DNA of 62,569 bases from Seison nebaliae (lineage: Eukaryota > Rotifera > Pararotatoria > Seisonacea > Seisonidae): positions 1 to 62,569 of the forward strand of contig JALJEE010000946.1 in the NCBI GenBank assembly GCA_023231475.1. The letters are read 5' to 3'. The number at the start of each line of letters is the position of its first letter. Position 1 is the stretch's first letter. The position numbers were made by a program, and so were the translations under genes. Below are positions 7,559 to 61,200 of the stretch, piece after piece. The notes beneath the pieces are model-generated. The model was given only the letters and a program-made list of their open reading frames with translations, made no database searches and was not told where the DNA came from.

Positions 7559-8379
7559 ATGATCAAACCAATATTTTTCCTGGCCTTCCTCATACTTTCA
7601 GGTTCGTTTCAATTTCCAAATATCCTTATCTATTATTTTAGCGGAAAGTTATCTGGTGAAATTTGCTAAATTGCCTTCATATTTAACAATTGGAAAAACG
7701 GATGAATTTTACGATTTTTCCAATCCTGCACTTAAATTTGTTTTTTCACGATTATTGAAAATGGAGGAAATGGTTCCATTCGAAGATATTCTCCCATCCA
7801 ATTTCCGCTTATCTACATCTGATGTGGTTGAGAGTCCGAATAAAATCATTATCGATACCAAATTGGTTGGAGATGTTCAGAAGGTTTTGGAGAGATATCT
7901 AAAAAATTATAAAAATGTTCCAAAAATTAATTTTGAAGTTAACATAATTTCTTTTATATAATTTGAACAACAATTTATTTGGTAGAATGATGAAAAGGAA
8001 ATCCAATTTACTAATGGAAATGTCATATCATTAATTCCGGAGAATTATGATAATTCTCTTATCGTGCAAATAAAGGAGAAAGAGAATTATCGTTCGAAAC
8101 GGTTTTACTCCCTTTCTCAATTTCCTTCTTTTTTAATTTCTCGAAATTTCTAGAGAAACTGCATCGACAACAACATCAACACCATCGAATCATTCCGTAA
8201 ATGCTGTAACCGAATTCTACACGGCTGAGTTTCCTGTGATGTTCAATCTGATTTTGTGGTTGTTCCTTCATTTGGCCATGGGCATTTTCGTTATTTGTTA
8301 CGAAATGTTATCGTCCAATTCGGGAGAGGATACAATTCTTTACAAATTAACAGGCATTAAAGCAAAGAAGAACCAATAA
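7559..8379 (+). CDS. ATP6AP2: V-ATPase accessory protein 2 (renin receptor), short form
   Basis: Exons 7559-7601, 7642-7937, 7986-8101 and 8154-8379 join in phase to 226 residues; the introns are 40, 48 and 52 nt. The protein has a signal peptide (FFLAFLILSG), a luminal domain, then YRSKRETAS, a basic site where the family is cut by furin. A single transmembrane helix follows (FNLILWLFLHLAMGIFVICYEM) and then a cytosolic tail with DTILYKLTGIKAKKN. The tail matches the ATP6AP2 signature (Y.S..GeD.I.Y.lT..K...), including a lysine-rich end in place of the usual KIRMD. Vertebrate ATP6AP2 has about 350 residues, so the luminal part is much shorter here. The family assembles the V-ATPase and acts in the ER and lysosome. 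Confidence 0.85.
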
Positions 8380-8783
8380 TTTCTTTTCCACATTCTATAA
8401 ATTTTATTATTCGTTTCATTGTCTAGTCGAAATAGAAAAAATTTTCTAAATTATTCAATTTAAATTTTGTCCAGAAATTACTATCAAATTCCCATTTCTT
8501 ATAAATAAATTTTCATCTTAATTCAACTTTATTTTACAATTTTCCATTTACTAACCTATAATTAAAAGTTTCTATATATTACAAATATAAATTGTTCTTC
8601 AAAAAAAATTTAAGGAGAATTTTATATTTTTATTTTACACTTATATTTTACGATATGTTCGATAATTCAAATTGAATAAATTTAATTTTCTCGATTTGTA
8701 AAAATAGTATTATAATAATTTTTGTGATTACAACGGACAAGTGATAGTTAAAGAGAAGATTTTCTATAAGAAGATTCTGAAAA
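8380..8783. other. Convergent 3' intergenic spacer
   Basis: AT-rich spacer between the convergent stop codons of ATP6AP2 and the Ig-domain gene. It should contain both polyadenylation sites; nothing else is visible. Confidence 0.5.
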
Positions 8784-10355
8784 TCAACGTCGTTTTATTA
8801 GACAAATGATGAAAAGAACGAATAGTATGAGGGCAATGATAAAAGTGAATAAAGAAGCGAAAATTAAAATTAAATTTGTTCTTTGCATAGTCTCATCGTT
8901 GAGAACGATTAATTTGTAAGTAGCCATCCGATTATTTTCATACAGGAAATAGTTACCATGTTCGATGGCTATTCGTTCAGTGTTCTCAAAAATTTTCGAA
9001 TATTTTACTTTCACCAATCGCTTCCATCGTCGTTTTGGCAACTTTAAAAGAAGTTTCGGTCTTTTATGTAAGAGATAACAACTGTAAATGCCTTCATCGT
9101 TGGCTGTTAAATTGAGAAGATAAAGACGGTTTTCAGAATGAAATTGTTTCATAGTGATGTTCGATTGAACAATTTTCGCATTCAATCGATCAATAAGACA
9201 TTTTTGATTATCGTTCTCATCCGAACATTTCAGTCTGTTATACGTCCACAAAATAACGTCGTTGTCAGGATTGAAGACATAAGGCAACGGACAAAGGAAT
9301 TCATGGTAATCGTGTTGATGAACGTATACCTTCTGAAGATGTTTTCCAACTTTCACTTCCGCTACGAATTTCCTTTCACCTGATAAATTAATTTCTTCAA
9401 TATTTTCGTTAAGATGATGATGATCGTCTTCTTTGCATTGTCTCATTTCGATATGAGAATGTGAATAGATGACTCGATGAAGAGCAATTCTATTTACGCT
9501 CGTATCCTCTCCATCCTCCAACAAAACTCGACACGGTAATTCCCCAGATAAGAGAAAATTATTGAAGAATGAATCACTTCCATTTCCTAATCCATATCGG
9601 ATTTTAGATGCTAAAGTTGGAAGAATTCGGAAGACACAACGTCCGATCAATTGTTGTTGAGTATGAGAGGAGGTGGCAGACCAAATAGGAACTTGACAAG
9701 AAGACCAACCTTCAAACAACGTTCCCAACCGAAAATTTAAATTCATCAAATGTCTCTCCATTTGCATGGTACTTCCACTTTTAACATAATTGATGAATTT
9801 CTTGTGCCATCGTTTCGTCTGGGAAAGTTGGAAGAAATGATGTCCTTTCATTGAATAAAAAAGCGGAATAATATGACTCTCCGAATTGTAGAGAAGGAAA
9901 GACGTCGTCACTTTGTCGTTATGGAGACAAATAAAATAAGAATTCTCCCGGAAATCTTTCTTGATGAAAAGGACATTGCTCATTTTAACGAAACGATTAT
10001 CATTCTCCTCGATATACTCCACTCCTTGAGATGTGATAGCTATCCATTTTAGTTCATGTTCTCTTAACGGATAAAGGGGATGAATACAAACAGAACAAAA
10101 TAATCTTGCATCATGACCCTTCTCCTTCCATATCATACGATATTTCACTAGGAACGTGGTAGACGCTACATTGGAGGTGGAGGTATCGATAGATAAATCA
10201 CCCAAACATGAATGATAATCGTCTATTGTATTTACATTTAAAATTTCTGATACATCATCTACAAACGAGACTCCGAGAATTGGAGTGATAATAAACATCA
10301 ACAACCGACAAACATGTTGAAAGTGGAAAAATCGATATTTTCCCATTTCACTCAA
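8784..10355 (-). CDS. Ig-domain single-pass membrane protein, FAM187-like
   Basis: An intronless 523-residue frame. It has an N-terminal hydrophobic signal (residues about 15-30) and a long extracellular part with many cysteines. Its C-terminal Ig domain is marked by LYLLNLTANDEGIYSCYL, the classic D.G.Y.C strand. A transmembrane helix near residues 497-520 and a short RR tail follow. The middle carries GWSSCQVPIW and GRCVF, a W..C ... G.C spacing like the segment between the two Ig modules of FAM187A/B. A first Ig domain around residues 85-145 (LFCSVCIHPL ... SYFICLHN) fits that layout. FAM187 function is poorly known. Other Ig-superfamily receptors remain possible. Confidence 0.5.
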   Translation of the reverse strand: MSEMGKYRFFHFQHVCRLLMFIITPILGVSFVDDVSEILNVNTIDDYHSCLGDLSIDTSTSNVASTTFLVKYRMIWKEKGHDARLFCSVCIHPLYPLREHELKWIAITSQGVEYIEENDNRFVKMSNVLFIKKDFRENSYFICLHNDKVTTSFLLYNSESHIIPLFYSMKGHHFFQLSQTKRWHKKFINYVKSGSTMQMERHLMNLNFRLGTLFEGWSSCQVPIWSATSSHTQQQLIGRCVFRILPTLASKIRYGLGNGSDSFFNNFLLSGELPCRVLLEDGEDTSVNRIALHRVIYSHSHIEMRQCKEDDHHHLNENIEEINLSGERKFVAEVKVGKHLQKVYVHQHDYHEFLCPLPYVFNPDNDVILWTYNRLKCSDENDNQKCLIDRLNAKIVQSNITMKQFHSENRLYLLNLTANDEGIYSCYLLHKRPKLLLKLPKRRWKRLVKVKYSKIFENTERIAIEHGNYFLYENNRMATYKLIVLNDETMQRTNLILIFASLFTFIIALILFVLFIICLIKRR

Positions 10356-12808: not shown

Positions 12809-13951
12809 ATGTTCGGCAAATTTTGGTGTTTTCTCCTTATCATACTCATCTCCTCAATTCCATTCAGTCGATGCAGTTTAGTTTTCAATCCGACTTTCAT
12901 TCACTCCAAATCTCCCTTCACATCTAGATTCGATGAACGATGACATAATCAATGACATGGATAATCAGAATGAGAAAAACGATAATGATGGAGAGGTGCA
13001 GGACGAAATGGAAGAAACGGATCATGAAACGGAACCGATTCCTGACGATTCACCACCAACAGAAGATGTACCAGAAACGGATGAGGCAACGGGAATGAAA
13101 GCTAATGCTGATGTCACCACTTCTCTCCATTATACGAACACGGAGCATAGTAGTTAATTTGATGATATTTTATTCATTTTCATTTTATTCGAAAAGATTT
13201 CGTTGCGGGAGAATCAGTTGAAATGTTAATCGGTTTCCATAACAACGGAAGTAGCACATTCTTATTGAAAAATATTGATGCATCTTTCCATTATCCTACT
13301 CAATATTCCTTCCTCTTATACAACGTCAGTCTTCTTCTTTTTCTTCTCTTATTATCATCTCTTTTCCAGTTTACATCATTCCAAACGAATGTCATTATTC
13401 CTCCAGGACAAGAATCAACCATCGCCTATACCATCATCACGAACCATGACGATGTTGGTCGTCAATACACATTCACAATTCTCTTGGGTTATGAAACGAT
13501 CGAAACAGATGAAGATGTCGATTCTGGTGTGACGAAATATTATCGAAATGTTCTCTTTAACCAAACTATCAATATCGTCGATATCGATGCTCATATGGAC
13601 AAAGAAGCGTTAATAAATTATTTTATTATTTTATTATTTATTTCTTTTTCATAGTTTCTTCATGTATGTTCTCATCGTTACATTTACTATTCTCATTGCA
13701 TTGGTCGCACAACAAATGTTGAACAAATTCGGATATTGTCGAAACTTGTTCGGAGGATCGAAAAGTTTCATAGCGAAAAACGAAAACGTCGATGGTTTAA
13801 TTTCATTAAATTATATTTTGTTTTCCAACATATCCTTCCAGATTACGTTAGTCAATGGAACACTTTGAAAGTTAAACCGAAAAGAAAGAAACCTATCAAC
13901 AACAACAACAATAATAATAACGGATATGATATGTGTGACAAGACGAACTGA
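12809..13951 (+). CDS. SSR1: Translocon-associated protein subunit alpha (TRAP-alpha)
   Basis: Exons 12809-12875, 12928-13152, 13197-13324, 13370-13608, 13655-13794 and 13842-13951 join in phase; the introns are 44-52 nt. The protein has a signal peptide (FWCFLLIILISSIPFSRC), a strongly acidic luminal segment rich in Asp and Glu, then the conserved core. The core includes VEMLIGFHNNGSSTF, SFQTNVIIPPGQESTIAY and YRNVLFNQTINIVD. A transmembrane helix (FMYVLIVTFTILIALVAQQ) and a basic cytosolic tail follow, starting NVDDYVSQWNTLKVKPK, the counterpart of the D.sWIP..TL segment of SSR1. It is part of the TRAP complex that helps signal sequences enter the Sec61 channel at the ER. The tail has an eight-residue Asn run. 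Confidence 0.92.
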
Positions 13952-16246: not shown

Positions 16247-16923
16247 ATGATGTATTCACATTTATCGATCCTCATCTTTCTACTCTATTGTATCAATCAG
16301 AATGAGAGTTTCTTCGTTACATTGGATGCGAACGGAGAGGAATGTTTCTTCGAACGAGTTGAACAAAATGTTAAATTATCCCTCAATTTCGAGGTTGTGG
16401 AAGGTGGTTTCCTCGACATCGATGTCAAAATAACTGGACCGGAGAAAAATGTGGTTTATGAAGGACAACGAGAGCCAAGTGGTCGTTACATGTTCACTTC
16501 GAAGACGAGCGGAGTTCACAATTTCTGCTTCTCCAACAAAATGAGTACAATGACTCCAAAAATCGTCATGTTCGATATTAGTGTGGGTGACGGTTTGATC
16601 GAATCGAAAAAAGGTTTTTCTCTTTTTCCTTCATTTTTATTTCATTCTTTTTTTCAGCTCTCGAAGGTGAAAATCCGGGAAATATAACCGATCATCAAGA
16701 GAAATTAATATCGATGGTGGCTGATCTCTCCAATCAAATGAGAACAGTGAAACATGAAAACGAATATATGGAAATTCGAGAGCGTCTTCATCGGATGGTG
16801 AACGAGAATACGAATCGACGTGTCGTCCTCTGGTCGGTGTTGGAGGCAATACTTCTCTTTTGTATGGCTATTGGTCAAGTGTATTATTTGAAACGATATT
16901 TCGAGATTCGCCGCGTCGTTTAA
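16247..16923 (+). CDS. TMED2: p24-family cargo receptor TMED2 (p24 beta)
   Basis: Exons 16247-16613 and 16658-16923 (44-nt intron) give 210 residues. The sequence has a signal peptide ([17 protein letters not shown]) and a GOLD domain with the paired cysteines in GEECFFERV and HNFCFSN. The conserved [11 protein letters not shown] and PSGRYMFT segments follow, then a coiled coil ([15 protein letters not shown] to [10 protein letters not shown]), a transmembrane helix and the tail [13 protein letters not shown]. That tail is almost the same as the COPI/COPII-sorting tail of animal TMED2. It cycles between ER and Golgi as a cargo receptor and coat recruiter. I started at the first of two adjacent ATGs; the 18 open upstream codons lack an ATG and family similarity. 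Confidence 0.95.
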
Positions 16924-18097: not shown

Positions 18098-18579
18098 ATG
18101 GCCAACGTTAAAACGAGACGATGTAAATTCCCTTTGAATGAATCACATGTCGCCTTCAGCTATCAGACTGCTCAACCCATATCTGACACATTTCATCATA
18201 TGAATTTTAGAGATGAAAAACATTCCTCCGTCCTCCTCCAACAACGAACACTCATTGAACACAGTCCAGTTCTACAACAAATTCTCGCTGATACGCCCAA
18301 TGGTGATAGTCTCATAAAACGTATGGAAGCCAAAGACGAACATTTGAGTAAGCAAGCATTCACCACTTCCCATCACAGTAATAAAGTGAGGGAAGAGATC
18401 AACAAAAGTTTTATCACTTCATCATTTCAATTAAACAATTTTCTATTTCAGATCTACCCGATTACGAGAAAATGAAGGAGACAACTTTCACCACGACTTA
18501 TCAACACGATTTCATGAATCCCAACGACAAAATTGAGACGTGCGACGAAGTTATGTCGAAAGTATTTGGGAGTTATTAA
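18098..18579 (+). CDS. Small soluble protein, possibly a ciliary microtubule-inner protein
   Basis: Exons 18098-18407 and 18452-18579 join in phase (44-nt intron, donor GTTTTA) to 145 residues. A better-looking GTAAGC donor at about 18351 would also stay in frame but would make a roughly 100-nt intron. The protein is soluble and polar, with no signal peptide or membrane segment. I do not recognise the family. The C-terminal pattern ETTFTTTYQHDF, followed by a short polar end, is reminiscent of the T.Y..d motifs of small axonemal microtubule-inner proteins. That is a resemblance only. Confidence 0.55.
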
Positions 18580-19801
18580 ATCAACTCAATTTCCTCAAAT
18601 TTCTAATCGCAAATTAAGAAGGATAATTCGATTTATCTCCAAATCCTTTTCCTCAATAAACTTACAGAACCCATAAAAATCATCTCGTTTAGAACGAGAT
18701 ATTTTAAACAATTTTTTAATAGACAAATTGAAGTTCATTTTTAAAGAGTTTTAAAGGAAATAAAGATCATTGGATCGAACAAACCATTGATCAAACAGAG
18801 AGTTGTATATGTTTAGTGGTTACTAGTTGTGAGTAATAAGTGCTCGTATGGGAACAAGTTATTGTCTGAAGAATCAAGGAAATAGGTATTGGAAAGAAGT
18901 GTCTTTCAAAAATCGAAGTCCAGCTAGATAATCTAGCTAATGATTGTGGGAGGAGAACTGAGCTGAATGACGAAATTTAACTTAAGTGAATTAATTTATA
19001 CCAAATTGACGCCGGTCAACCTAAGGTAAATATGGATAGAAGAAAGAATGAGAAGTTTCTGTTGGAATTGTCTAAAATTAATAAATAAACAATGTGGAAA
19101 TGATTCATATGACTATATTGTTCGTTGGGAAAATATTGTTACTGAATATCTTCCTGATGAGTAGAGATGAAAGATGAGAGAGAGAAAGAAAGAGAAGAAG
19201 AAGATGGCAGATGGAGAGAGGAGAAGATTGTTTAAATGAATTTGTAGGAGAAGAAAGTTGAAAAGTTGGTGGAATAGAATGAGCAGTTTGTAATTTTTTA
19301 GTACGATCATTCGCTTCTTATTATTCTTATTAATTTATCGTTAGAATAGTTTTTCTTCGCTATCGATCAAAAAACGATTAATGTACGTTTGTGTGTTATT
19401 GTGTGAACATCAGTGAAGATTCCCACAGTATTGGGAGGACGTAAATAGAATGTTCCAATCCTGTCATCTTACCATGAGTAGGAAGAGTGTGATAATTGAT
19501 GGACTTTCACCGTCGTCCATTCCATTCTTTCCGAATGAGCAGTAGGATGATGTAAGGAATGAATTGGGGAAGATGTACGCTGATGTGGATTAAGAGAACA
19601 GAGATGGTGAGTGGTGAATGGGTGGGCAGTGAGTGTGTGTTCGAGTGAAAAATGGAGAAAATAATTTTATTTGAATCTTTAGTTTTTCCAGTGAATTTAA
19701 TTAATTTGTGGAGAAATAAATGAGTGTTCTTTTCCAATTTATAATAGAATGAATTATAATTATTTGGCTGGAACAGAAAATGGAAAAGATGATGAGATGA
19801 G
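18580..19801. other. Piezo upstream intergenic region
   Basis: 1.2 kb, AT-rich, with purine-rich (GA) stretches around 19160-19240. Minus-strand frames here are low-complexity translations of those stretches. The region presumably holds the Piezo promoter and leader. Confidence 0.4.
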
Positions 19802-20462: not shown

Positions 20463-23400
20463 TGATAGTAGTGAGAAATGAGAATGAAGCGATTTTAGAG
20501 GAAGAAGAGATTATAATGAGAAGTGATAACAATGAATTGGAATTGGAGAGTATGTTAATGAATAATAATAATAATAAAGATATTAAATCAAATCGACGAT
20601 CATCAATAATCGATGCGGCTCAATATCGAATCATCTCCGAAACACTACGAATGGCCTTAGGCAAATGGAGTCGATTAACAGTATTAATTCTATTGTGTAT
20701 AAATGCATGCATCTCACCATCACTCATTTCATCTATTTATTTCATCATTTTCATTACCGTTCTAACCGTTCATGTTTCCACCACTTTCTCTTTACCCGTC
20801 GATGATGACGAGACGGTAATGGAGAAAGAGAATGGAAATAATCATGTCGCTCAAAAGAAACGAAGTGGATTCTTTTTTCGATTTAACATCTTCCCACACC
20901 ATTCCAACAGTCGATCGAATGACGATGACGATGGCGATCATGATGATGATGACGACGAAAATGAGATTGATGGCAATTTAGATGATGATCGAAGTTATTT
21001 AACAAAATTCGGTAAGTTCAGTAAAGGTAATCGACAGAAACATTATTATTATTATTTCTTTTATGATATCATCGTTCAAACATTCCTTCTCATCTTTTCT
21101 GCCATTCACATTCTCTCATTCTACATTTATCAATTTCCATTGATTGGTACTCTCGTTTATGATATGGAACCGGAACATCGAACTAATACCTCCACCATTT
21201 TCCAACAAATCTTCATTCCACTTCTCGGTTATCGTCGTCTCATATTTAACACTTGTCTCAATCATTCAATTATTCCATCAAATATCACAACATCTACCAG
21301 TTTCTTCGCCAATCTAACAACAACAACAACAACAACATCGACAATGATTAGTAAATTAATAAATGAGACAATGAATGATATTGTGAATGAAACGGAAATA
21401 TTCAATCGATTTATAGATCATTCTTCATCTATCGATTCTTTAATCAATAGTGATGGTATTATGATGAATCGACAACATTTGTCATTACAAAAAGATTTGA
21501 AATTTTATTGGCCATTCTATTTTCTCTTCTTTTCTCTCATTCTCTTCTATCACATTCTCGCCTACGAATTAGTCGTTGTTCGATGGAAAGAATATTATCC
21601 AAATAGTCGTCTTATCAATCATAATCGCACCAACAACAGTAACAACAATAATAATAAGAATGAAAGTCATTCGAGAAGGAAGAATTTATCACCTGATCAT
21701 CAATTATCTACTGTTAATTCATCTCATCGGAAAATGACATTGAATAAAATGAATCAATCACAAGATTATCCACAAACAATAACAACATCACTCTCACAAT
21801 CCACCGAATCTAGTCATCGTCCAATCGAACAGTTTTATTTTCTATTAATTCAAATTCACATTCAAATTCAAATTAATTTTTCTTTTAATCTCTTTAATCT
21901 TTTTCGAAAATTTAGATTATCAATCGATAAACAATCCAATTCTAATTTGATGATACAATTGAATAAAGTTCGTATTAAATTTCCATTTTTGACGCATTTC
22001 TTTCTGCTGATTCTATTCGTCTTCTCTTGCCATTCCTTCGCCTTTTTCCATGTCCCATTCTTCTTCTTCCTCCCTCTCATCTTCCTTCTTCTTTTTTCGC
22101 TACGAAGTTTTTGTTTTTTTAAGGAAAACTTTTTTTTTCTTTTCATATTCTTTTCAAGAATGGTAAGTTCGTTTCCAAATTATCCAATTCTCTTTCGCAT
22201 GTCAATGAACGAATGAATCAGAAAAGTGAGAATGAAGAAATGGAAAACCGTTCGAATCATCTCGAAGAGTCGGAGCAACTCCTCCCCAAAAAATTCTCGA
22301 ACAATCGTCTCCTTTCCGTCAATCGTCCGTCTCTCAACCAATCAAGAAATTCGACTGACATCGAACAGGTTCCAATCTTCATCCACCATCACTACTCGAC
22401 AAATCGTCTCTTTTATTTTGCTTCTGCTGATAATAATTTCTTTCCATTCTATCCGGAAATTAAACGATTTATTATTATTATTTTCATTTTATTATTATTA
22501 TTTATATTAAATTTATTAAATTTCATATCATAGAATCGAATGGGACAAAAATCGATGAAATTATTTGCCGATAAAATTCTGTTGATGAGACCGCTAATGG
22601 AATTACCATATGCCAAAGATAATAATCATGGTGTTGTCTGGCCGAAACATCGACGTATTATCGAGAAGAGTATTCGTATCAGAAGTGCCGTCGTCACTAC
22701 TTTAGTTCTCGTTACAAGACAATCATATCTCTTAACACTCATCAGTATGATGGCATGGGCTGTCACTTATCATTCCATTCTTACCGGCGTCTTATTAGCT
22801 GCTGCAATTCTCATGTGGTTATTACCAAATTCACGTGTTCATACATTGAGGACGTCGCCTTTCTTTGTCGCTTACGCCTTATGTCTACTCATTATTCAAT
22901 ATATTTATGGATTGGATCTTCCGGAAACCATCCTTCCTGAGAATGTAACGATTCTTGATATTTCATTGACAAAGTTTGGAATTAGTCGATGGGAGAACAT
23001 TTCCCAATATGCTTGTTTCCATCTCTTTCTCAAAATCATTTTTACTCTATTCTTTTGGATGACATTGAGAGAATTCATCAGAGAACGACATCAAACTGAT
23101 TCGAATCGAACTGTAACAAAAGACAACGAATTTATGCAACAAATTGGACGATATTTCTATTTGTTGTTAGCGAAGTATTGGCTCTTTATTTGTAGTACGA
23201 TGTTACTAATCATCAGTATTAAAAAGAATGATATCGTCGCTTATCGAGTCATTTATATGTTACTCTTCTTATTATTCATTATTCTCCTCCAAAGTAGTTA
23301 TATCGTTTGGCGACGAACATTAAAAGGATTTCTTATTCTTGTCATTCTTTATTCCATCATTGTTCTCATTCTGACATATGTCGTCCAATTCGATCTGGGA

Positions 23401-24139: not shown

Positions 24140-24173
<34 letters not shown>

Positions 24174-24383: not shown

Positions 24384-24454
<71 letters not shown>

Positions 24455-28789: not shown

Positions 28790-28823
<34 letters not shown>

Positions 28824-39341: not shown

Positions 39342-39454
39342 ACGAACAAGAAATAAGTATGACAAAAAGAAGACCGAATATTATCGAGAGAAGGAGACAA
39401 TTTGGTTGAAAGATTAGAAATTTGACTACATATTGTAGAAAGTGTTATGTTCTT

Positions 39455-40060
39455 CTACTGATTCACCGATATACGTAAGTTACCCAATGTTTCATTGGTG
39501 AATAATAACACATCCAATAGAGTCTGATTAGAAGTGGAAAACAACAGTATATCGTCGGCGTCCGCATGTGAAGCGTTTTGACGTATAGTCTTTATTTGTA
39601 TATAAATGGTCCTATGAAAAGAGGTCAACATGATGAAAACGGGGTTGAACGCGTAATAGAATATATACGCAAGTAGCCAATTACGCGAACCAGAGAAAAA
39701 GTATACAAACACCGAATTGGAAGCGTTAGCAGTACTTTTCGCCACGGAGTAAAACACTATATAGTCTTTATTTATATAAATGGTGAAATAGGAAATAAAT
39801 ATGAGAGGAAACGACTGTTACTTCCTAAGAAGTATAGAAAAGAATCATAGGTATGACTGTGTCTTCTTGATCAACTGAGTGAGGATCTATAGTCTGGTGA
39901 CTGCTTTTATAGTCGCTCCCCGATCGAAGTATATATATATAGCGATCGAAGTACATCGATGGAGTCAAACGCTCTTGATATGTCGACAAATGAAATATTA
40001 AAGGGGACGGTTCGTTGTTCTATGATAATAGATCAGCAAGGATGTACTCCTCTGGTGTTT
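39455..40060 (-). mobile_element. Non-LTR reverse-transcriptase relic
   Basis: On the minus strand, about 39954-39990 reads NISFVDISRAFDSID (RT motif A). About 39537-39568 reads ADADDILLFSTS (the F/YADD catalytic motif, preceded by His-Ala). It is followed by LLFTNETLGNLRISVNQ, the usual helix after motif C. The two parts lie in different frames with stops between them, so this is a dead fragment. Confidence 0.75.
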
Positions 40061-48275: not shown

Positions 48276-48730
48276 CAGAATATTCTCGATCATTCCAATC
48301 TATAAAGGACACGGTAAAGATACCAAGGAGGTAAACTCTTATCGTCCTATTTGGGTCGCTAGTCAAATTTAATGGGTTATTGGTTTCTATCTCGAATACG
48401 AAGAAATCATTACGATGTCTTGATCGTGCATACAATAGAACAGTTCGGAGGATGCTCGGTTGTCACAAACCTTTCAATAGAGCATTTATGTTCAGAGAAT
48501 CTGCGAATTGACTACTTTGGCGCTACTCCTGGTGCAGAGGTTTCTGAAAGTAGTTGATTCTGGTGGCAGGTCGACACTTTCAGTTCCGAAATTTTCACAA
48601 CGTGAGAGCTTCTCGTCCCCTCTCAAATTTTTCTGTCGATATTATTAAATTACGTATCCGACTTCACTGGACGATGCGTTAGTGTTTCAACATTATTTCC
48701 TATGTGCCTGAGTGACTCAAGAACCATATT
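48276..48730 (+). mobile_element. Non-LTR reverse-transcriptase relic, plus strand
   Basis: 48280-48360 translates to FSIIPIYKGHGKDTKEVNSY followed by RPI, the K.gd....NYRPI motif at the start of the RT domain. After a stop and a deletion, 48440-48640 gives RRMLGCHKPFNRAFMFRESA, then with a frameshift LALLLVQRFLKVV. That is the usual C-terminal region of LINE polyproteins. The palm domain between them is missing. Confidence 0.65.
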
Positions 48731-48755
48731 GCGACAGGCAAGAATCTTATTTTAA

Positions 48756-48785
48756 ATAACTCCTTTAAGGAGTTATCTTTTTTTC
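48756..48785 (+). repeat. Stem-loop followed by T-rich tract
   Basis: ATAACTCCTT, one T, AAGGAGTTAT forms a perfect 10-bp inverted repeat directly before a run of T. It lies about 125 bp upstream of the SOSS-B-like start. The role is unknown. Confidence 0.5.
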
Positions 48786-48907
48786 TTTTCAATTTACCCC
48801 ATGGGGATTTGATATGAATAAAAAAAAATGAGAGAAGTCATTCTAATTGATCTATTCAATTTCTCAGCTTTATTTTTCCTTTAAATAATTGTTCTCTGTG
48901 GAGTGAG

Positions 48908-50161: not shown

Positions 50162-51798
50162 ATGGATAATAATTATACAGTCAATCCCGAAATCAATTAC
50201 AATCCCCACCTCACCAAACAAAACTTTATTCAATCCATCATCTTATTCTGCATTTTCGCCGTATCATTCATCGCTAACTCGACAGTCGTCGTATTGATAT
50301 CGACGAAGAGTTGTCGAAAGAATTCCCATCAGATCTGTAAGAATAATGCCATACGAATTTTTGTTCGTCAATTAGCCATCTCCGATTTGGCCGTAACGAC
50401 ATTCGGCATTCTCGGAGAGGCCATATGGAAAGTTCCATTCTCTTCCTTCATCTTCACCTCATATTCTCTCTGACAGTTGACAGTCATGTTCTACGGTAGT
50501 AACTTCCTGTGCAAATGGTTGAAAACAATGCAGATCTTCGCATTCTATCTCTCCATTATTAGTACCATATTAATCAGTGCTGATCGGTATGTCGCCGTTC
50601 AACATCCTCTTTCTCTCCACAACTGGCACCAACATCTAACATCAGTCATATCATTCGGATGGTTCCTCTCCCTACTTCTCTCACTCCCACAAGTTACTCC
50701 TCCTTTCTACATTCTCCTCATTCACTTTCATTTTTCAGTGTTTCATTTTCAAATTAGCTACGCCATCAGTCTCCTCACACTTCTGGCAATGTGTCAGTTT
50801 CTTTTTCCTCGAACAATCGTTCCTAAACGGGGAAATATTAAAAAATAATTTGACGAACGTAGACGAAGCGATTAAAGAGAAACATTCAATTTTCATTCGA
50901 TTGAAAGATGTACAACTTCATGATTTCTGCTATCGAATTTACGCATTACTTTCCTTATTCATCATTCCTCTTCTAATCATCGCTTACTTCTATTGGCGTA
51001 TTTCCAAATGTCTATTCGATCGTCGACATCATTCCTACGTATCAAACTTCTCTCACAAACGACCCAAATCCTCGAACAAACACAGTGACAAGAATCAGCA
51101 TTCACAAATCTCAATTCAAAATAACGGTTCCGTTAGCAGTTTCTCCAGAGGCGTTCATCGCATCTCCACAACATCTTTCATCGATACACTCAAATACAAA
51201 AAAAGTCAATCGATAACAAGTTCATTTTTTTTTCTCCAAGCAATCATTCCATCTTTTATTAGCCGTCGATTCCCGTAATATTCCTGGTGACTTAATGGAA
51301 TTCGATTGTCCGTCAACTTCACGTTGGAAATATTCGACCAATTCCAGTCGTACTACAAGGAAATCAGATTTACGACGAAAATCTACAGGCAAATGTTATG
51401 GTAATCGAGGAACATCAAAAGCCTTAAAAAAGTCTCTGTTGTTAAGTATTTCCATTGTTCTATTATTCATTCTATTTCACGCTCCTTATTACATACGAAT
51501 GTTGATTCATATGACTTTCTCCAATCAGACAGAGTCGAAAACTCAAAAACTTTTTGCCGAATATATTTTCTTTTCAGTTCTCATCAACTCCGCTCTCAAT
51601 CCGGTTATTTATGGAGTTTTCTCATCTCGAATTTGTTAAAAATATAAGAATTCTTTTTCCACATTCATATCTCAACATACAATGTATGATAAACACATTC
51701 TTTTACATTTATTTCTTTTTTCAGTCATATTTCGTGAGAAATCATTAAATGGAATTTTCCTTTTCTATCGACTTTTATTTAGGATTAGATATGGATAA
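50162..51798 (+). CDS. Class A GPCR, GnRH/AKH/corazonin-receptor-like
   Basis: Exons 50162-50431, 50477-50692, 50739-51219, 51263-51634 and 51725-51798 join in phase to 470 residues. Seven membrane helices are visible. Landmarks are VRQLAISDLAVTTFG in TM2, WKLTVMFYGSNFLCKWLKT with the TM3 cysteine, ISADRYVAVQHPLSL (DRY), SLPQCFIFK in TM4 and HFWQCVSFF with the loop-2 cysteine. TM6 has LFILFHAPYYI and TM7 has NSALNPVIYG. The W..TV.F.G..LCK and QC.SF patterns, together with the HPL after DRY, place it with the GnRH/AKH/corazonin/vasopressin group. The third intracellular loop is long and Ser/Lys-rich. Exon 5 rests only on splice signals; otherwise the protein ends at a TAA at 51637. Confidence 0.82.
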
Positions 51799-51879: not shown

Positions 51880-54800
51880 TTATGCTTCGTTCTGACTGTT
51901 AATTAATTTTTGAATTCGTCGTTTTCGAACTTTCATTCTCTTCCTCACTTTCGTCGTTCCACTCTCGTTCTTTTTAGGGATTTGTTCAATCTCCTCAATC
52001 TTCTCTTCTGTCGTCACCAATTTCGATCCTTCACCATCTACCAATTTCCCATTTTCTGACGGTAACTTGTAATTGTGTAATTCTACCGAATTCTTCAAAT
52101 AATAATTCGATGGTGTTACTTCGCTAAAGAACTTATCCTTCTCATTCGTCTCGTCGAGTGTTGTCGCCTTTGAACTGAAACTTCTCAATGATTTCTTCTT
52201 TGACAAGTTACTGGCACTTCGAGATGAATCGGGACCATTCACCAGTTTGATATCAGAATAAGATTTAAATACTTTCGAATTCTTCTGTGGTGTTATCGTA
52301 TCAGGTGATTTATTTTGACCGAACTCTAAAAATTTCCCACGAACAATACTTGATGATTCACCACCAGCTACATTCCCTTGAACTGTCTCTTTTTTTTTCT
52401 CCCCTTTCTCTTCCTCCGAACCTTTACGAGCTGAATTAAATCGATAATATTCACTTCCCATACTTGGCAGTGTATCGGATTCACCCGATTTCGCTAAAAT
52501 TCGTCGCGACGTAATAATTTTCTTCGAATAATAAGTTGACGGTTGTTCATTATCCGAAATATCTGCCTTGGATTTATCAGCTTTCCATTTTTTATTTGTT
52601 TTTCGTTTCTTTTCTTTAGGACGGACTTGTTTGTCCGAACTCGATTTACCACGAACTGATCTTCCCCAACTCGATTTTCCATGACTTGTTTTACCTCGGC
52701 TCGATTTACCTCGACTCGTTTTTCCTCGACTCGATTTTCCACGACTCGATTTCCCACGAATTGATCTACTATGAACTGATTTACCATATGTTGATCTTCC
52801 TTTACTACGTTTTCTGTTACTTCGAACTTTACGAGATTTCATTTTCTTTGAACTACCTTTACTCGGTCGATTATGTTCTCCTAACGTATATCCACTCGGT
52901 CGATCAGGAAAAGTAGCGTCTTGAGTTTTTCTATCTCCCATGGATTTGGTGTCACTCGGTCGTTCTAAAATCGGCCCACTAGACCGATCGTTATGAACAT
53001 TGTCATGAGTTGGTCGAATAACACTACTTCTCAGTACACTCGTTCGAACTTTACTCGTTCGTATATGTTTCGATTTATCGTGTTTCGATTTATCTGGTTT
53101 CGATTTGTCGCGATTCTGTTTATCTACTTTCGATTTATCTACTTTTGATTTATCTACTTTCGATTTATCTACTTTTGACTTTTCTGCTTTGGATTTTTCT
53201 GGTTTCGGTTTTTCCGCTTTCGATTTTTCTGAATGAACATTGCTTGGTGGACCCTGATGTTGAGTTGGAGCTGGATGATGATTTACGACCAATGTTTTAT
53301 TCGACGGAATCTGACTCAGCTTACTAAATCGTTTCGAACTGACTTTATTGACGGAAGCGGAATATAACGGATTTAGGGATGATCGGTTTGAATAAGCAAT
53401 ATTTTTGTAGTATTTATAACCGGTGAGTGAAGAGGAGGTGGATGAGTCACGTTCTGAAATGGCATTAACAACGAACTTACTTACAGACGCTGTTCCAGTG
53501 GACATGGATCTTGATGGAACATAAGTACTAGGTCGTGGATAAATTTTTAATGGGGTCGAATCATTCTTATAATCTCCAACGAATAAATATGTTTTTCTCG
53601 TGGCTTCTTCCTTCTCTGATTTTTCGATGTCTTCCGTGGGAATTGGTTGGAATGATTCGGATGAATTAGAAGCAGATATTGCAGTTTCTGGATCAATTTC
53701 TTCCGTCTCATAAAAACTCGAACCATTCATATGATACATACTACTATATTTATTATAACTGACTTTGACAGCTTCTTGTGATTCTCCTCCTTCAACATCT
53801 TCTTCCGATTGAGCTCGTACTTCAGTGTTCCTATCACGTTCAATTATTATTCGTCGCACTGGCATATGTAGCAAATAAACGATAAGAATGATAAATAAGA
53901 TGAAAAAGAAAATGGAGAGTTGGAGTATGGTGAATTGGGAACCGATGAGTATTGAAGCACCAGTAACAAATACGACCAATAACGGTGCATAAGTGATTCG
54001 ACGACTAACGTAATCTTCATTCATTAATCGTGTACAATTATATCGAAGGTGAAAAGAAGTAATTAGTGTCACTAACAAATAACACAAGACGACCACACTC
54101 GCCAACAATATATAAATGGTGTTGTTGGATCGGAGGGAACCGGAAAAGAACCCTAAAAGAAATAAAGTACCGTTACCAAGACTGAAGGACCAAATAGTTA
54201 ATTTAGTATAAGGTGAGTCATATGCGGCGCATTTCTTTCCACTTTCACATTGACACACATGATTTGCATGAGGTTCACTTAGTCGACTGTAAAGTAATAG
54301 GTAACAGTGAGTTACAGCTCGAAATAAGAATGAGAGAATGATGAAAGAAACCATCACATGTGTTTGGATCCATAATCCCAATCCAATGCAAGCTGCTAAA
54401 CAAAGAAAAATGAAAGCAAATCGTATTTTCAAAGAGGTACGATAGCCGGCCAAAAGAAATATCAATTGTTTCCTCCCAATATTCTTCAACAGTTCATCGA
54501 TATAATTCGCCATCCATACTTGTTGAATGACTAAGGACAAATATGGGAAAAGAAAGCCAACGAATGCTCCTCGGTATAAAGATTTCTTATAAAGAAAAGC
54601 CCAAATTACGGGCGTCGTCGAATTAGTCAATATCCAGGGACACGTTACGGTCATTGAGACGATGAAGATCCCGTACAACGAAGTAGCGATAAGAATAGTG
54701 ACATTAACGGCAGCCCATTCGCCAATTTTCGCTTTCTGAACATAAACATGCTCATAGTCGACAAAGGCGTAGAGTGCTAGACCGACACTCGCCAACATAT

Positions 54801-55527
54801 TCGAATTGTCGTCAGGAAATGTGACACTCTTCGTCGGTTCTATCGTACTGCTGTAAATGAAAGTGAATGACAAGGACAAAATGACGACGATATTGATGGA
54901 GGAGAGTATTTTGGTGGAGTAGCATTTCAAATGATAATGGATGATGGAAAAGAATACCATGATGAGGAGGGTGAGGAAGAGCCACCAATTGACGAAATCC
55001 ATAATGAGAAATCGGAAGAGGTAAGGCAATTGTTTCCACTTGGCTTTGATATAGATCGATTTCCTCTCCACATAATTATTCATGTACATGTCAAACATTA
55101 GTGCACCAATCTGAATACTGACGATAATGACTAAAACTAAGCCTACAAATATTGAGTTGAATGGGATATTGTTATAGTCGAGAATGAAACTTATCAATGT
55201 CGTCCACATGAGAATGAATGATACGAGAGCTGAGACTGACCGTTGGAAGATTTTAAAGTGACATCTCTGGTCGTAAATAGCAAGCAGTTCGGAATGTATC
55301 GAATTTATGAGAATAACAAGAATACCAGCAATAATAAAAGCGATGAATGCGGATGAACCTAAAGGAAGTTATTGTAGTTTTAGAGGAACATAGTTTTAAT
55401 TGATGTATTAGTTGATGAATTAACCGGCATAATTAGCGATAATCTCTCCAGATAGCGAATAAATACCGACGCCAAACATCAGATTAATGACGTTGGAGAA
55501 GATATCGTAATTCTCCATCATCGACAT
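51880..55527 (-). CDS. SLC7/APC-type amino-acid transporter-like protein with long repeat tail
   Basis: Exons 55527-55425 and 55358-51880 (66-nt intron) join to 1,193 residues. TM1 carries NLMFGVGIYSLSGEIIANYA, the unwound GxG helix of CAT-type (SLC7) transporters. GSSAFIAFIIAGILVILINS and a later LALYAFVDYEHVYVQKAKIG align with CAT TM2 and with the LYAFvGFd.i.t..eE segment of TM6. About a dozen helices fill residues 10-540. The remaining 650 residues are cytosolic, polar and very basic, with two tandem pentapeptide arrays: KSKVD units at about residues 743-794 and RGKSS units at about 897-941. The acidic substrate-site residue of the CAT TM6 motif is poorly conserved, so transport activity is uncertain. 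The first ATG was chosen because it directly precedes TM1. Confidence 0.65.
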
Positions 55528-55772: not shown

Positions 55773-56959
55773 ATGACAGAAAATCACGATTCAGTTCAAC
55801 CTCTCTTGAATTTGGTGAATTCGAACAAATCCGTGAAACATTCGGATGATGATGTTCATTTTCTTTTTCTTCTCCTCATCCTCATTCTTTCGAATTAGGC
55901 CGATTTCATAATGAAACGTATCGACAATCTCTCCCTCTGTATTCAAGGAGACGAGAGTAGTCGGAAATCCATCATCACTCTCCACGATTTAGGTGCCAAC
56001 GGGCTCAATCAGATGTTGCCCTTCTTTCTTCATCAAGATCTCGCCGTCATCACTCGACATCAATTCTCCATTATTCATGTGACGGCACCAGGTCAAGAAA
56101 ATAAGACGAGAACAATTTCCGAATTTCCGACGATGGATCAATTATCATCGAACATCTTCAAACTCATTCGAACGATGAAGTTCTCTCTCTTTCTCTTTCT
56201 CTCTTAAATTTTTGATTGAATTTTGAGTATTCAACAATATGTTGTTTTTGGGGTTGGGTTTGGTGCAAATGTTCTCGCACGTTTAGCTGTTAATATATTT
56301 TTTTTTATTTATTCAATTTATAATTTAAAAATTTTTTTTCATTTTTAGAAATACGACAACGAACGTTGTGTCGGTGCCGTTCTCTTTAACATCTCGTCGA
56401 GTAAATGTGGCTGGTTGGAATGGTACTATCAGAAATGGAATATTTGGTATCTCTTATCACACACATATACGGATGCCATCCATCAATACATTCTCTGGCA
56501 TCATTTCGGTAGTGTTGGAATTTTTGAAATTTCATTTTTCCAATTAAATTAATTTCACACATTTCTAGAGAACGATGAATGACAATCCGGAATTAGTGGA
56601 AGATTATGGATCAATTATTAACAACGAAATCAATCCCTACAATCTCGGACTTCTCATTCAAACCTATACACAGTTTTCCATTCGAATTATGCGAGAAATT
56701 ATCAATTATTTTTTAAAGACGGACCGATCTCAATATCGTTCGAGAAATGAAAGAAAACAACATCAAATGTCCCTCTCTCTTCATTATCGGCAATTTCTCC
56801 GATCATGAAGACGACACGGAATACTCATTCTCCCGAGTACCGTCTAATGAGGCGTCATTCATGAAAATACAAGATTGTGGAGGTGCTCCATTACTTGAAC
56901 AACCGGAACAAGTGGCCGAAGCATTCCGACTCTTCTTACAAGGACTGGGATTCCGTTAG
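55773..56959 (+). CDS. NDRG: NDRG-family protein
   Basis: Exons 55773-55853, 55899-56179, 56228-56288, 56349-56513, 56569-56672 and 56719-56959 join in phase to 310 residues (introns 45-60 nt). The alpha/beta-hydrolase core is recognisable: SIITLHDLGANGLNQMLPFF, FSIIHVTAPGQE, FPTMDQLSSNIFKLI, YVVFGVGFGANVLARLA (the G.G.Ga nucleophile elbow, with Gly where a hydrolase has Ser), RTDLNIVREMKENNIKCPSL, and a C-terminal DCGGAPLLEQPEQVAEAF then FLQGLGFR. NDRG proteins are catalytically inactive hydrolase relatives involved in stress response, differentiation and membrane trafficking. The tail beyond FLQG is absent, as in the shorter family members. Confidence 0.92.
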
Positions 56960-57929: not shown

Positions 57930-57932
<3 letters not shown>

Positions 57933-57962: not shown

Positions 57963-57971
<9 letters not shown>

Positions 57972-58249
57972 TGAATGGAATTATTATATTATTTCTCATA
58001 AGAAAAGAAGAAGTTGTTTAATTTTTGAACGGAAAAGTGTTGTCTCCTCCTTCTCCTTCTCCTCACATACTTCCACCTCTTTCCTTTCCATCCGATCATA
58101 GAGAGTCTAAATTTCACTCCTTCCAGATGTTCCTTATCAGATAATCATTCCAATCTGCTCTTTCTCCTCATGATGACGATGATGAGTTGGAGAGCGTTGC
58201 ACACTGATTAAGTGGAGGCATTGCAAACGAAGAATGTGAAGAAGAAGAA

Positions 58250-61200
58250 ATGGGAAAAATAAAGAAAGTGCATCGTCGATCGAGTGCTCGTCGCTACAGT
58301 TCTCTCACCGTTGCGACCGATGACGAAATGCCGAATCGATTTCAATTATCAATTTCACTTCATCCACATCATTTACTCTTCGTCATCTTCATTCTAATTG
58401 GCGTCACAATTTCCTTCTCTTCCAATCTCTTATTTCGATCCATCGACTTCTGCTCAATCGACGTTTATTCAACTCTTCCAACTATCGACGGCACCGACGA
58501 TAATAACAATCGACTCATATCAAAATTTAACGAGAGAATTCAAGCCGTCAGAAATCAATATCTTCGACAATCAAAACAATTCATCAAAAAAGAATTTATT
58601 CATCCCGAAATACGGAAACATCGTGCATTCATTCAACGAATACATAATAAACCGATTCACATATCACACAAATCATCTCAATCAACATCGATCAATGCGC
58701 CATCGTCTCAAGGAAAATTGGGGAAATCCAAATCGATTTTCGAAGGAATTCGTCAAGAAGATTTCGTTCCTCGCATTGTTCCACTACCGAAAATTCCCAA
58801 TGATTCCAATAAGAAACCGGTAGCACGTCCCAGATATTTCGCCGACGAATTTCACATTCGACACACATTATTAATTGGAATTATGATGGATGTGAATCAA
58901 TTGTCGACATATGGAATCGCTCTCAATTTGACTTTGAGTCCGTTCGTCGATCGACTTATCTTTTTCGTGAAGAAACAAACATCCATCGATCAATTTCCTT
59001 CATCGTTGAATATCGTTCAATCGAAAGATGAAACGAAAACTTACGATCCGTTATCACTCATCGAATATTTATCAGAGAAGGCAGTGAGAGAATATCGATA
59101 TATTATGATAGCTCCATATAAAACCTTCATTAACGGTGAACGAGTTCCACTTTCTTGTCATGAAATATTTTTTAATTTTTTTTAAAGATTTATTCGATTT
59201 TACAGAAAACCAGTATCGCTTACAACGTTTATATTGGAAGTGGAATCAAATCATCATGTAATTTCCAGAATGGAATTATTTTTAGTTCGGTTAGAACACT
59301 TAATAAATTCGAATCATTAATTTCTTTTAAGAATTTGATACAAACAATTCAAGGGAATCTGGAGAAATGTCGACCAATAAATCAATCGACCGATTTTTCA
59401 TCAATAATCTATCGATGTCTCCGATTATCAGCACCGATGATGAAGTCATGTCAATCGTCGACTACCACCCCCTCCAATTTCCAATTCCTCGATTTTTCAT
59501 CTCTCAAAACTGATCAGATTAGTGAGAATCTCTTCTCTGTCAGCAATATGGGCAATGCAACGGAAATTTTAAAAATATTCAGGTTTTTCTCATTTGACTT
59601 CCACAAAAAACTTATTGTTAATAGAATGACAGCGAATTTACATCATGAACATGATAAAAATGAAAAAGAATTGTTAATTCGGACGATCGATAATGATATC
59701 GTTTGTTTCACTCCTGGTGGTTGTAATAGTTTCGACTGGCCACATTCTGTGAATTGGATGATGAAATCAGATAATCGTTTCGACATCCTCCGCTACCATT
59801 ATGTGAATGAAACGAATTATTTCTTTAACAATGAAAATAAGAATACGAACCTTCATGAACATTCGAATGTTTTTGATTTTCAAGAAATTATCGAATATGG
59901 AATTTCTAAGATTTATATGGAATATGTTCATCTTCCCAATTCGTCAGTTGTTCAATTTAATCGATTATCGAACTTGTTCCACAAATTCGACGTGTTACGA
60001 GGGAGCGAATATATTATCGATCTATTATTCGATTTGAAGAGCGACGAATTTATTCAACCGATTAACCGACGTCTACATCTATTCCGTCCACTTCAACAAC
60101 AACAGTATGTCACTCATATGCCTCTGTCGTCGGAGCAGGAACGTTTGTTCATCATTCTTCCAGTCCATCATGACGAGATCACACGAGCTCTCCAATTCGC
60201 TAAATCAATTTGTAATAATTTAATGGAATCGTTACGAGAGGAAAGTAGTAGTTTATCAATTCTTTTCGTTCTCGTCAATAGACAAACGACCGATGGGAAA
60301 CAATTCGAAAGATTCCGTCAAATACTTCCGGAAATGCAAAAGGATTGTCAACATGAATATGAGAATCGAACATTCGCCTATTTGCGACGAACGAAGAAGA
60401 ATCTGAAGAAATTGGACATAAAATTCCGTTTACATTTCCATCATCTCTCCATCGAAACGACGACGGAAAAATATCGTTTGGATAACGATTTCATTCTCAT
60501 CGATGCCGTCTCTAATTATTTCTCACTGAAATTCTCCAAATCTAAATTGAACTCGGATGAATTGAGAAAAGAAAAAGAGAAAATAATTTTGTTCTATATG
60601 AGAAGTAGCGCGACTCGTTTCCATTTAGAATTGATCGAACGAATCAAAAGTCACATCGTACCAAATCAAGTGGTCTATGTTCCTATTGCATTCTATTCAT
60701 TCTCACCATATGTCACTCAAATGGCGGGCGGAAATGATGACATGAATCCACAAACTCTACAAATGCAACAAGACGAATTGAGAATTGATAGTCGTTCAGG
60801 TCGTTATTTCTCCGAAGTCGCTTATCATTCAGCATTCACTCTTAATGACTATCTGGATGCAAAGATTCACTGTTCCGCCTCAAATTACACATTCGATGGT
60901 TTCGTTTATGGTCAGAAGCGAATTCGTGATTTTCTCGATTTCTTCCTAATTTGTGCTCCAAATCTACATGTGATGCGATCGAATGACGAACTCATCGTAC
61001 AATGGCCTCATTTCGGTCGACCTCTCTACTTCGATGCGAACCAATTATTCTTCAAAACTAATCGCCAGTCCTTCCTCTACAATCGATATCTAACGACAAG
61101 TTTCGATATGATCGACCACGATTCTACATTCATTTGCGACAGACAACGTCCGTGGATCGACGAAGACGAACGAGAAGCATGTAATCAACTACATCTAAAA

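What the first reader, a model, noticed from the sequence alone, without database searches (positions are those of the whole stretch)
7602..59624. Splice donors almost always GTT, with no GTRAGT sites
Across 36 hand-joined introns in ten genes, 34 donors begin GTT (GTTAAT, GTTCGT, GTTTTT, GTTCCA and so on). The exceptions are GTC and GTA, and none is GTAAGT or GTGAGT. The base at +3 is normally purine in animals and pairs with U1 and U6 snRNA. Most introns are only 40-66 nt. A switch to +3 T suggests altered 5' splice-site recognition in this lineage. Caveat: in three or four cases (18408, 59144, 59583, 56514) the GTT preference helped choose between alternatives; most others are forced by homology on both sides.
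Basis: partly seen in the sequence, partly recalled or inferred. Interest (0 to 1): 0.8.

Follow-up and report, generated by a model that had tools for sequence, protein, structure and literature searches.

The report
Rewritten splice-start signal with matching U1
In the small epizoic rotifer Seison nebaliae nearly every intron examined starts with GTT instead of the usual GTA or GTG, and most of the gene copies found for the RNA that reads this signal carry the one matching letter change, which looks like a natural rewriting of part of the splicing code.

Summary
The window is Seison nebaliae, an epizoic rotifer. A gene finder of mine with no donor preference, run on 262 kb, gave +3 T at 72% of 165 introns of 35-75 nt (T follows GT 40% of the time); 15 other "donor" dinucleotides stayed within 9 points of background. 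Self-trained, it gave 235 GTT of 248 introns and no GTRAGT. Started from a human GTRAGT matrix it moved to 91% +3 T in eight rounds. Two public gene models support 16 of 16 GTT introns. +5 G is also lost (18%).

Of four U1 genes found, three (64-67% identical to one another, cloverleaf kept) begin AUACUAAC: U1 position 6, facing donor +3, is A instead of U and pairs with +3 U. One also has C9U, which pairs with the now common -1 A. The fourth keeps the canonical 5' end but lost the U1A loop. The U6, U5 and U2 boxes are unchanged. I read this as co-evolution of U1 and its donors in an animal. Expression of the U1 genes and their use in splicing are not shown.

The parts
9042..9082 (-). predicted intron, donor GTTGTT
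   Evidence: no in-frame stop, not 3n; lies inside an open frame of 527 aa, less certain
9692..9994 (-). predicted intron, donor GTTTCG
   Evidence: stop-free and 3n, could be exon
13153..13196 (+). intron, donor GTTAAT
   Evidence: in-frame stop inside
13217..13369 (+). predicted intron, donor GTTGAA
   Evidence: stop-free and 3n, could be exon
13609..13654 (+). intron, donor GTTAAT
   Evidence: in-frame stop inside
13795..13841 (+). intron, donor GTTTAA
   Evidence: not 3n
16614..16657 (+). intron, donor GTTTTT
   Evidence: not 3n
   Evidence: not 3n
18550..18746 (+). intron, donor GTTATG
   Evidence: in-frame stop inside; long, less certain
22974..23081 (+). predicted intron, donor GTTTGG
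   Evidence: stop-free and 3n, could be exon
29726..29785 (+). predicted intron, donor GTTATT
   Evidence: stop-free and 3n, could be exon
30092..30142 (+). predicted intron, donor GTTCTT
   Evidence: stop-free and 3n, could be exon
30894..30946 (+). intron, donor GTTTCA
   Evidence: in-frame stop inside
31106..31167 (+). intron, donor GTTCTC
   Evidence: in-frame stop inside
31316..31370 (+). intron, donor GTTCAT
   Evidence: not 3n
31536..31615 (+). intron, donor GTTCAA
   Evidence: not 3n
31757..31806 (+). intron, donor GTTTCA
   Evidence: not 3n
33018..33062 (+). predicted intron, donor GTTGGA
   Evidence: stop-free and 3n, could be exon
36187..36395 (+). intron of public model SNEBB_000737, donor GTTAAT; it joins CCT2 to the next gene and may be an annotation fusion
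   Evidence: the only junction tried that reproduces the protein; not in my model
36640..36697 (+). intron, donor GTTAAA
   Evidence: searches agree
36804..36845 (+). intron, donor GTTAGC
   Evidence: searches agree
36911..36952 (+). intron, donor GTTTTT
   Evidence: searches agree
37181..37230 (+). intron, donor GTTAAA
   Evidence: searches agree
37608..37650 (+). intron of the public model, donor GTTTTT; my model had 37585-37633 GTC here, taken as an error
38920..38966 (+). intron, donor GTTTGA
   Evidence: in-frame stop inside
39239..39588 (+). intron, donor GTTCGA
   Evidence: in-frame stop inside; long, less certain
48540..48769 (+). intron, donor GTTTCT
   Evidence: in-frame stop inside; long, less certain
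48772..48903 (+). predicted intron, donor GTTATC
   Evidence: leaves a 2-nt exon before it, doubtful
51085..51148 (+). predicted intron with exceptional donor GTGACA
   Evidence: in-frame stop inside; not checked by homology
51220..51262 (+). intron, donor GTTCAT
   Evidence: not 3n
51432..51724 (+). predicted intron with exceptional donor GTCTCT
   Evidence: long, less certain
52093..52132 (-). predicted intron, donor GTTCTT
   Evidence: not 3n but inside an open frame of 1162 aa, less certain
54851..55039 (-). predicted intron with exceptional donor GTGGAA
   Evidence: stop-free and 3n, inside an open frame of 1162 aa, doubtful
55143..55190 (-). predicted intron, donor GTTTCA
   Evidence: stop-free and 3n, could be exon
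55359..55424 (-). intron, donor GTTAAT
   Evidence: in-frame stop inside
56673..56718 (+). intron, donor GTTTTC
   Evidence: not 3n
   Evidence: in-frame stop inside
59290..59331 (+). predicted intron, donor GTTAGA
   Evidence: stop-free and 3n, could be exon
   Evidence: stop-free and 3n, could be exon

Best explanation
Seison nebaliae has shifted its 5' splice-site code. The donor is GTT with a weak exonic A, then A or G, before it, and the usual +3 purine, +4 A and +5 G are no longer visibly selected. The shift is matched by the RNA that reads donors: three of the four U1 snRNA genes found carry A instead of U at position 6, so the U1-donor helix has an A6:U+3 pair where U1 normally offers pseudouridine 6 to A or G at +3. 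One of these U1s also carries U9 and can pair with the now common -1 A. Shown: the donor pattern, the U1 substitutions, and unchanged U6, U5 and U2 boxes and U1C zinc finger. Inferred: that the A6 U1s are expressed and are the ones that select GTT donors; that the change came through U1 duplication followed by replacement of donors, with the canonical U1 copy a remnant or a minor player; and that the hand-over to U6 tolerates +3 U, possibly as a wobble with a G of the ACAGAGA box.
For: Neutral gene finding gives GTT, with 15 negative-control dinucleotides near background. Training moves to GTT from a neutral start (95%) and from a human matrix (91% after eight rounds), the neutral start fitting better. 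235 of 248 introns are GTT and 0 are GTRAGT; among introns with an in-frame stop, 142 of 152. Two public annotated proteins support 6 of 6 and 10 of 10 GTT introns. In two actin genes the only GT-AG junction among the six best shown is GTT. U1 A6 is in 3 of 4 genes; these three are only 64-67% identical to one another, yet share positions 1-8. The four genes keep the cloverleaf, with 15 of 41 predicted pairs showing a two-sided change. The three A6 U1s keep the U1A loop CAUUGCAC and are followed by the box AATTAAACT that also follows U2a and U5 (10 occurrences in 525 kb counting both strands, U1 sites included). The stretches that carry U1 have GTT introns themselves (L006 21 of 22, L007 3 of 3, L008 13 of 13). 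By number of pairs, canonical U1 does not tell real donors from decoy GTs (5.31 v 5.32), A6 does (6.22 v 5.32) and A6U9 more so (6.74 v 5.58).
Against: No transcript data: neither U1 expression nor the junctions are shown directly, and I do not know whether the public gene models used RNA-seq. A U1 gene with the canonical 5' end exists and keeps its fold (42 of 46 pairs). By duplex energy canonical U1 also does slightly better on real donors than on decoys (-2.00 v -1.69 kcal/mol), against -2.65 v -1.92 for A6 and -2.93 v -1.84 for A6U9; all these helices are weak, so other factors must help. The donor set for this comparison came from the trained model, so it is partly circular. Loss of +5 G weakens pairing with U1 C4 and with U6, which the A6 change does not explain. 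No upstream promoter motif clearly shared by all copies was secured.
Confidence: 0.85

Rival explanations
1. The donors are GTT, but recognition no longer depends on U1 pairing; U5, U6, U1C or other proteins select GTT, and the U1 change is drift under relaxed constraint.
For: +4 and +5 carry almost no signal and the helix is short. Entamoeba has GUUUGUU donors and is reported to lack a detectable U1 snRNA (PMC6085484 and PMC13292270, passages read). The loss of +5 G is unexplained by A6.
Against: Drift should hit other positions of the U1 5' end; in three U1 genes that differ at a third of their sites, positions 1-5, 7, 8, 10 and 11 are intact and both changed positions (6 and 9) match the donor shift. 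The U6 and U5 boxes are unchanged.
Confidence: 0.1
2. The GTT preference is an artefact of gene finding in an AT-rich genome.
For: T is the commonest base after GT (39.7%); flat-donor runs give 70-78% overall, not 95%; and at least one false intron of my model starts GTT.
Against: 15 control dinucleotides show no such bias. A human donor start moves to GTT. Public proteins need exactly these junctions in 16 of 16 cases. The matching U1 change is independent of gene finding.
Confidence: 0.02
3. The A6 U1 genes are minor variant U1s like those of humans, or pseudogenes, and the canonical U1d does most of the work by tolerating a +3 mismatch.
For: Human variant U1 genes with changed 5' ends exist (PMC5159530, passages). 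U1d is intact at its 5' end and folds, and by energy it favours real donors slightly.
Against: The A6 genes outnumber it 3 to 1 among the genes found and keep the U1A loop and 3' box, while U1d has CAGAGCAC in place of CAUUGCAC and a one-base-off 3' box (U2b is one base off too). By pair count canonical U1 fits the donors no better than decoys.
Confidence: 0.08

Closest known systems
Canonical metazoan U2-type spliceosome with U1 AUACUUACCUG and MAG|GTRAGT donors
   Same: GT-AG introns; U1, U2, U5 and U6 genes found with canonical U2, U5 and U6 boxes; U1C zinc finger and SNRNP27 domain present. U4 was not searched
   Different: U1 position 6 is A in 3 of 4 genes; donors have +3 T and no +4 A or +5 G signal
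Saccharomycotina switches from +4 A to +4 U donors (PMC10581693, passages read)
   Same: A lineage-wide switch of one donor base from A to U
   Different: There U1 ACUUACC was invariant in all species in which U1 was found and the switch tracks METTL16 and SNRNP27K; here the base is +3 and U1 itself has changed
Fritillaria borealis non-canonical introns (PMC13326754, passages read)
   Same: An animal with lineage-wide donor change
   Different: There the U1 5' end is strictly kept and U2AF duplication and m6A are invoked; here introns stay GT-AG and U1 changed
Diplonemid S. specki alternative U1 with a C stretch at its 5' end (PMC12621601, passages read)
   Same: A U1 gene with a changed 5' end beside a conventional one
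   Different: There the two U1s show comparable complementarity to the species' donor logo; here both changes improve the match
Human variant U1 snRNAs (PMC5159530, passages read)
   Same: U1 paralogs with base changes in the donor-pairing 5' end
   Different: Reported for selected target genes beside a canonical main U1; that human donors did not shift with them is my own knowledge
Entamoeba GUUUGUU donors (PMC6085484, PMC13292270, passages read)
   Same: +3 U donors, short introns, canonical U6 box
   Different: Entamoeba keeps a G at +5 and is reported to lack U1 snRNA; Seison has U1 with a matching base

Membership tests
U2-type (major) spliceosomal introns | GT-AG ends | tested here: met
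   GT-AG gives the best likelihood of 16 donor dinucleotides with AG, and of three acceptors (AG, TG, AC) with GT
U2-type (major) spliceosomal introns | Donor consensus GTRAGT complementary to canonical U1 | tested here: not met
   +3 T 235 of 248, no GTRAGT; +5 G 18%
U2-type (major) spliceosomal introns | Canonical U6 ACAGAGA, U5 loop and U2 branch-pairing box | tested here: met
   Rfam alignments
U12-type introns | U12 snRNA in the genome | tested here: inconclusive
   No match to RF00007, but no control genome rang either
U1 snRNA (RF00003) | Score above gathering threshold and cloverleaf fold | tested here: met
   4 genes, 97-113 bits against 69.5; 37-43 of 46 pairs standard
U1 snRNA (RF00003) | 5' end AUACUUACCUG | tested here: not met
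   1 of 4 genes has it; 3 have A6, one of those also U9
Functional U1 snRNA | Transcribed, capped, in Sm particles | not testable with these tools
   No RNA data held

The most novel reading that the evidence does not exclude
A natural, genome-wide reassignment of part of the 5' splice-site code in an animal. U1 was duplicated and mutated at position 6 (and once at 9), donors genome-wide followed from GTR to GTT, and the organism now carries several diverged U1s with different reading letters (A6C9, A6U9 and canonical U6C9) that may divide the donors between them, much as tRNAs do in codon reassignment.
Probability: 0.6. Interest if true: 0.93.

Novelty: new variant of a known kind. Interest (0 to 1): 0.88.

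Why it matters
The donor-pairing end of U1 is treated as fixed. A survey of yeast-clade genomes (U1 found in 227 of 230, and in 9 of 10 outgroups) considered that a U1 change from pseudouridine to A could compensate an A-to-U donor switch and found none (PMC10581693, passages), and a highly derived tunicate kept its U1 end (PMC13326754, passages). Seison would be a natural counterpart of the laboratory experiments in which a changed U1 rescues a changed donor. It lets one ask in a real genome how splicing codes change, how much U1 rather than U6 sets donor choice, and why +5 G became dispensable. It also matters practically: gene finders set to GTRAGT donors may misjudge this genome, as mine did before retraining.

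Tried and rejected
C629:103997 matches the 5' pattern ATACTAACTTGGC but has no Rfam U1 match; rejected as a chance hit. A bdelloid spliced-leader sequence recalled from memory was not found with up to 3 mismatches, so a U1-independent donor could not be used as a test. No strong branch-point motif in 209 intron tails. Exonic GTT is not avoided (observed/expected 1.05). The idea that the reported loss of conserved genes in Seison is a splice-model artefact was dropped: the transcriptomes show nearly the same share missing (34.3 and 35.2%) as the genome assemblies (35.4 and 36.5%) (PMC8351084, passages). A shared promoter motif was only slightly above shuffles (101.9 bits against 87-94, the null being less exhaustively searched). 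The third actin-like gene (C557) gave no usable junction, probably because its alignment has a gap; not counted. Ras and tubulin hits were listed but their loci could not be cut out, so those genes gave no introns. Part used a cut that is wrong for minus-strand introns; redone, and the base tallies of 88 are not used. Copy numbers of snRNAs are lower bounds: for U1 only 41 of 293 first-look candidates were scored, for U6 47 of 5404.

Rows dropped: introns without enough flank for a 10- or 12-base context were left out of some counts: tallies 97 of 99 introns, tally 245 of 248 in the logos, tallies 247. The decoy energies rest on 1000 of 3000 sampled decoys. In one search wrong acceptors with GT donors gave 61% (TG, 124 introns) and 44% (AC, 104 introns) +3 T.
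Full report
What the window is. An ORF of the window matches SNEBB_000737 of Seison nebaliae (100% identity over 99% of the query). Seison is an epizoic rotifer. The assembly searched has 36.0 Mb in 846 contigs and the window is contig C649.

The observation. I wrote a two-strand semi-Markov gene finder (coding by codon usage, non-coding and intron content from the same DNA) and ran it on the window plus 20 stretches of 10 kb from 20 other contigs, 262 kb or 0.7% of the assembly. Four of those stretches were chosen from contigs carrying U1 or U6, the other 16 by contig number. 70% of 97 introns had T at +3, against 39.7% T after all GTs. Limited to 35-75 nt, 72% of 165 introns had +3 T. The same run with each of the 15 other dinucleotides as a fake donor gave a third-base composition within 9 points of its own background, and GT-AG had the best likelihood. 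With GT donors and wrong acceptors, +3 T fell to 61% (TG) and 44% (AC). Iterated training from the neutral start ended with 248 introns; of the 245 with full context 233 are GTT, 7 GTG, 4 GTC, 1 GTA. Over all 248 it is 235 GTT and no GTAAGT or GTGAGT. Started from a human-like GTRAGT matrix (frequencies recalled), the training moved to 91% +3 T in eight rounds, still rising, with lower likelihood than the neutral start. With the donor matrix flattened but acceptor and lengths trained, 178 of 229 introns have +3 T; with only +3 flattened, 198 of 233. Of 247 introns sorted by need, 152 contain an in-frame stop if read through (142 GTT), 58 have none but are not 3n (57 GTT), and 37 are stop-free and 3n and could be exon (36 GTT). 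In the window I find 38 introns, 34 of them GTT.

Independent support for the introns. The public protein SNEBB_000737 can be rebuilt from the window at 6 junctions, each with a single GT-AG solution in the range tried, all GTT; one of the six joins what look like two genes and may be a fusion. The public protein SNEBB_010580 (guanylate cyclase domains) has 10 junctions, each with a single GT-AG solution, all GTT. My model of that gene differs from it only by a 17-residue piece wrongly removed; that false intron also starts GTT, so some of my stop-free 3n introns are false and training can inflate the share. In two actin genes, 95-96% identical to an intronless actin, the only GT-AG junction among the six best shown is GTTCAT and GTTACC. 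I do not know whether the public models used RNA-seq.

The rest of the donor. -1 is A 52%, G 29%; -2 is A 53%; +4 is T 36%, A 33%, C 24%, G 7%; +5 is A 39%, T 23%, C 20%, G 18%. Beyond GT, +3 carries 1.28 bits, -1 0.29 and -2 0.18; +8 and +7 carry 0.17 and 0.12, from T; +4, +5 and +6 carry under 0.1.

The snRNAs. Rfam models find one U6 with an unchanged ACAGAGA box, three U2 genes with unchanged GUGUAGUAUCUGUUCU and one U5 with GCCUUUUACU. U1 has four genes above threshold. Three begin AUACUAAC: U1a (C208:8280-8439-), U1b (C647:4426-4585-) and U1c (C762:47440-47598-); U1c reads AUACUAACUUG. U1d (C208:6576-6739+) reads AUACUUACCUG. In the standard register U1 position 6 faces donor +3 and position 9 faces -1 (established knowledge; PMC10581693 places position 5 opposite +4). 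So A6 pairs with U+3 and U9 pairs with A-1. The four copies are 62-67% identical and keep the cloverleaf; 15 of 41 predicted pairs have two-sided changes, 23 of 46 when the Rfam structure is imposed. All four therefore look like old, selected genes and not fresh pseudogenes. U1a-c keep the U1A loop CAUUGCAC, and U1d has CAGAGCAC. U1a-c are followed by AATTAAACT, the same box as after U2a and U5; U1d has AATTCAACT and U2b AATTTAACT. The box occurs 10 times in 525 kb, both strands counted and these U1 sites included. The stretches that carry U1 have GTT introns, so they are not contamination.

Fit of U1 to donors. Over 245 donors canonical U1 makes 5.31 pairs on average against 5.32 for decoy GTs; A6 makes 6.22 against 5.32; A6U9 makes 6.74 against 5.58. 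Duplex energies are -2.00 against -1.69, -2.65 against -1.92 and -2.93 against -1.84 kcal/mol, so canonical U1 keeps a slight preference by energy. The donors come from the trained model, so this comparison is partly circular. The U1C zinc finger, the protein part that touches the U1-donor helix (established knowledge), is identical over 20 residues to the U1C chain 2vrd_A (gene C664), and a SNRNP27 domain is present.

Mechanism. Most likely the A6 U1 snRNPs select GTT donors through an A6:U+3 pair next to A7:U+2 and C8:G+1. Exon bases -2 and -1 then pair with U10 and with C9 or U9 of U1, and later with the U loop of U5. Hand-over to the unchanged U6 box must tolerate +3 U and no +5 G. Shown: sequences and statistics. 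Inferred: expression, use and history. The simplest history is a U1 duplication with A6, a period with both kinds (both still present), replacement of donors, and decay of the canonical copy's U1A site.

Known work. In a study of Saccharomycotina, U1 was found in 227 of 230 genomes and 9 of 10 outgroups, and ACUUACC was invariant in all of them, although the authors considered that a U1 change could compensate a donor switch (PMC10581693, passages). Fritillaria keeps its U1 5' end (PMC13326754, passages). A diplonemid has an alternative U1 with a C stretch and comparable fit (PMC12621601, passages). Human variant U1s have 5' changes and act on selected genes (PMC5159530, passages). Entamoeba has GUUUGUU donors and no known U1 (PMC6085484 and PMC13292270, passages). 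In the Seison genome paper the word intron occurs twice, both about gene compactness, and splice once, on homeodomain exons (PMC8351084, term search). My full-text searches for Seison nebaliae with intron (4 papers) and Seison with snRNA (none), and more general ones, listed no report of this by title or abstract start; the library holds only openly licensed papers.

What is not explained: the loss of +5 G, the role of U1d, the 13 of 248 non-GTT donors (several in doubtful models), and whether other rotifers share the change (the collections on hand are described as viral, prokaryote, plasmid and metagenome, and I searched none of them for rotifer DNA).

Noticed in passing
G000:C208:8280-8439(-), C647:4426-4585(-), C762:47440-47598(-): The variant U1 5' end AUACUAAC contains UACUAAC, the yeast-type branch-point box (recalled), complementary to U2 GUAGUA, so free U1 could in principle pair with U2.
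   Followed up: no
G000:C208:6576-8439: The canonical-end U1d and the A6 U1a lie head to head on one contig, about 1.5 kb apart, yet are only 62% identical; the four U1 copies are strongly diverged for one genome.
   Followed up: partly
introns sampled: +5 G and +4 A, normally among the strongest donor signals after GT, are near background level, which should weaken pairing with U6 as well as U1.
   Followed up: partly
window 34575-37814: Public protein SNEBB_000737 joins a CCT2 chaperonin gene and a second gene with an IF-2B (eIF2B-like) domain into one product; probably an annotation fusion, though a shared transcript is not excluded.
   Followed up: partly
downstream of U1a-c, U2a and U5: AATTAAACT looks like this animal's snRNA 3' box.
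   Followed up: partly
L028 (C796:78598-78799): A third U2 copy scores 79 bits against 135-139, has many broken pairs and lacks the 3' box; probably a pseudogene.
   Followed up: no
window 22534-31827: A long gene rich in poly-N and poly-Q stretches that resembles the channel Piezo (from the look of the sequence, not searched).
   Followed up: no
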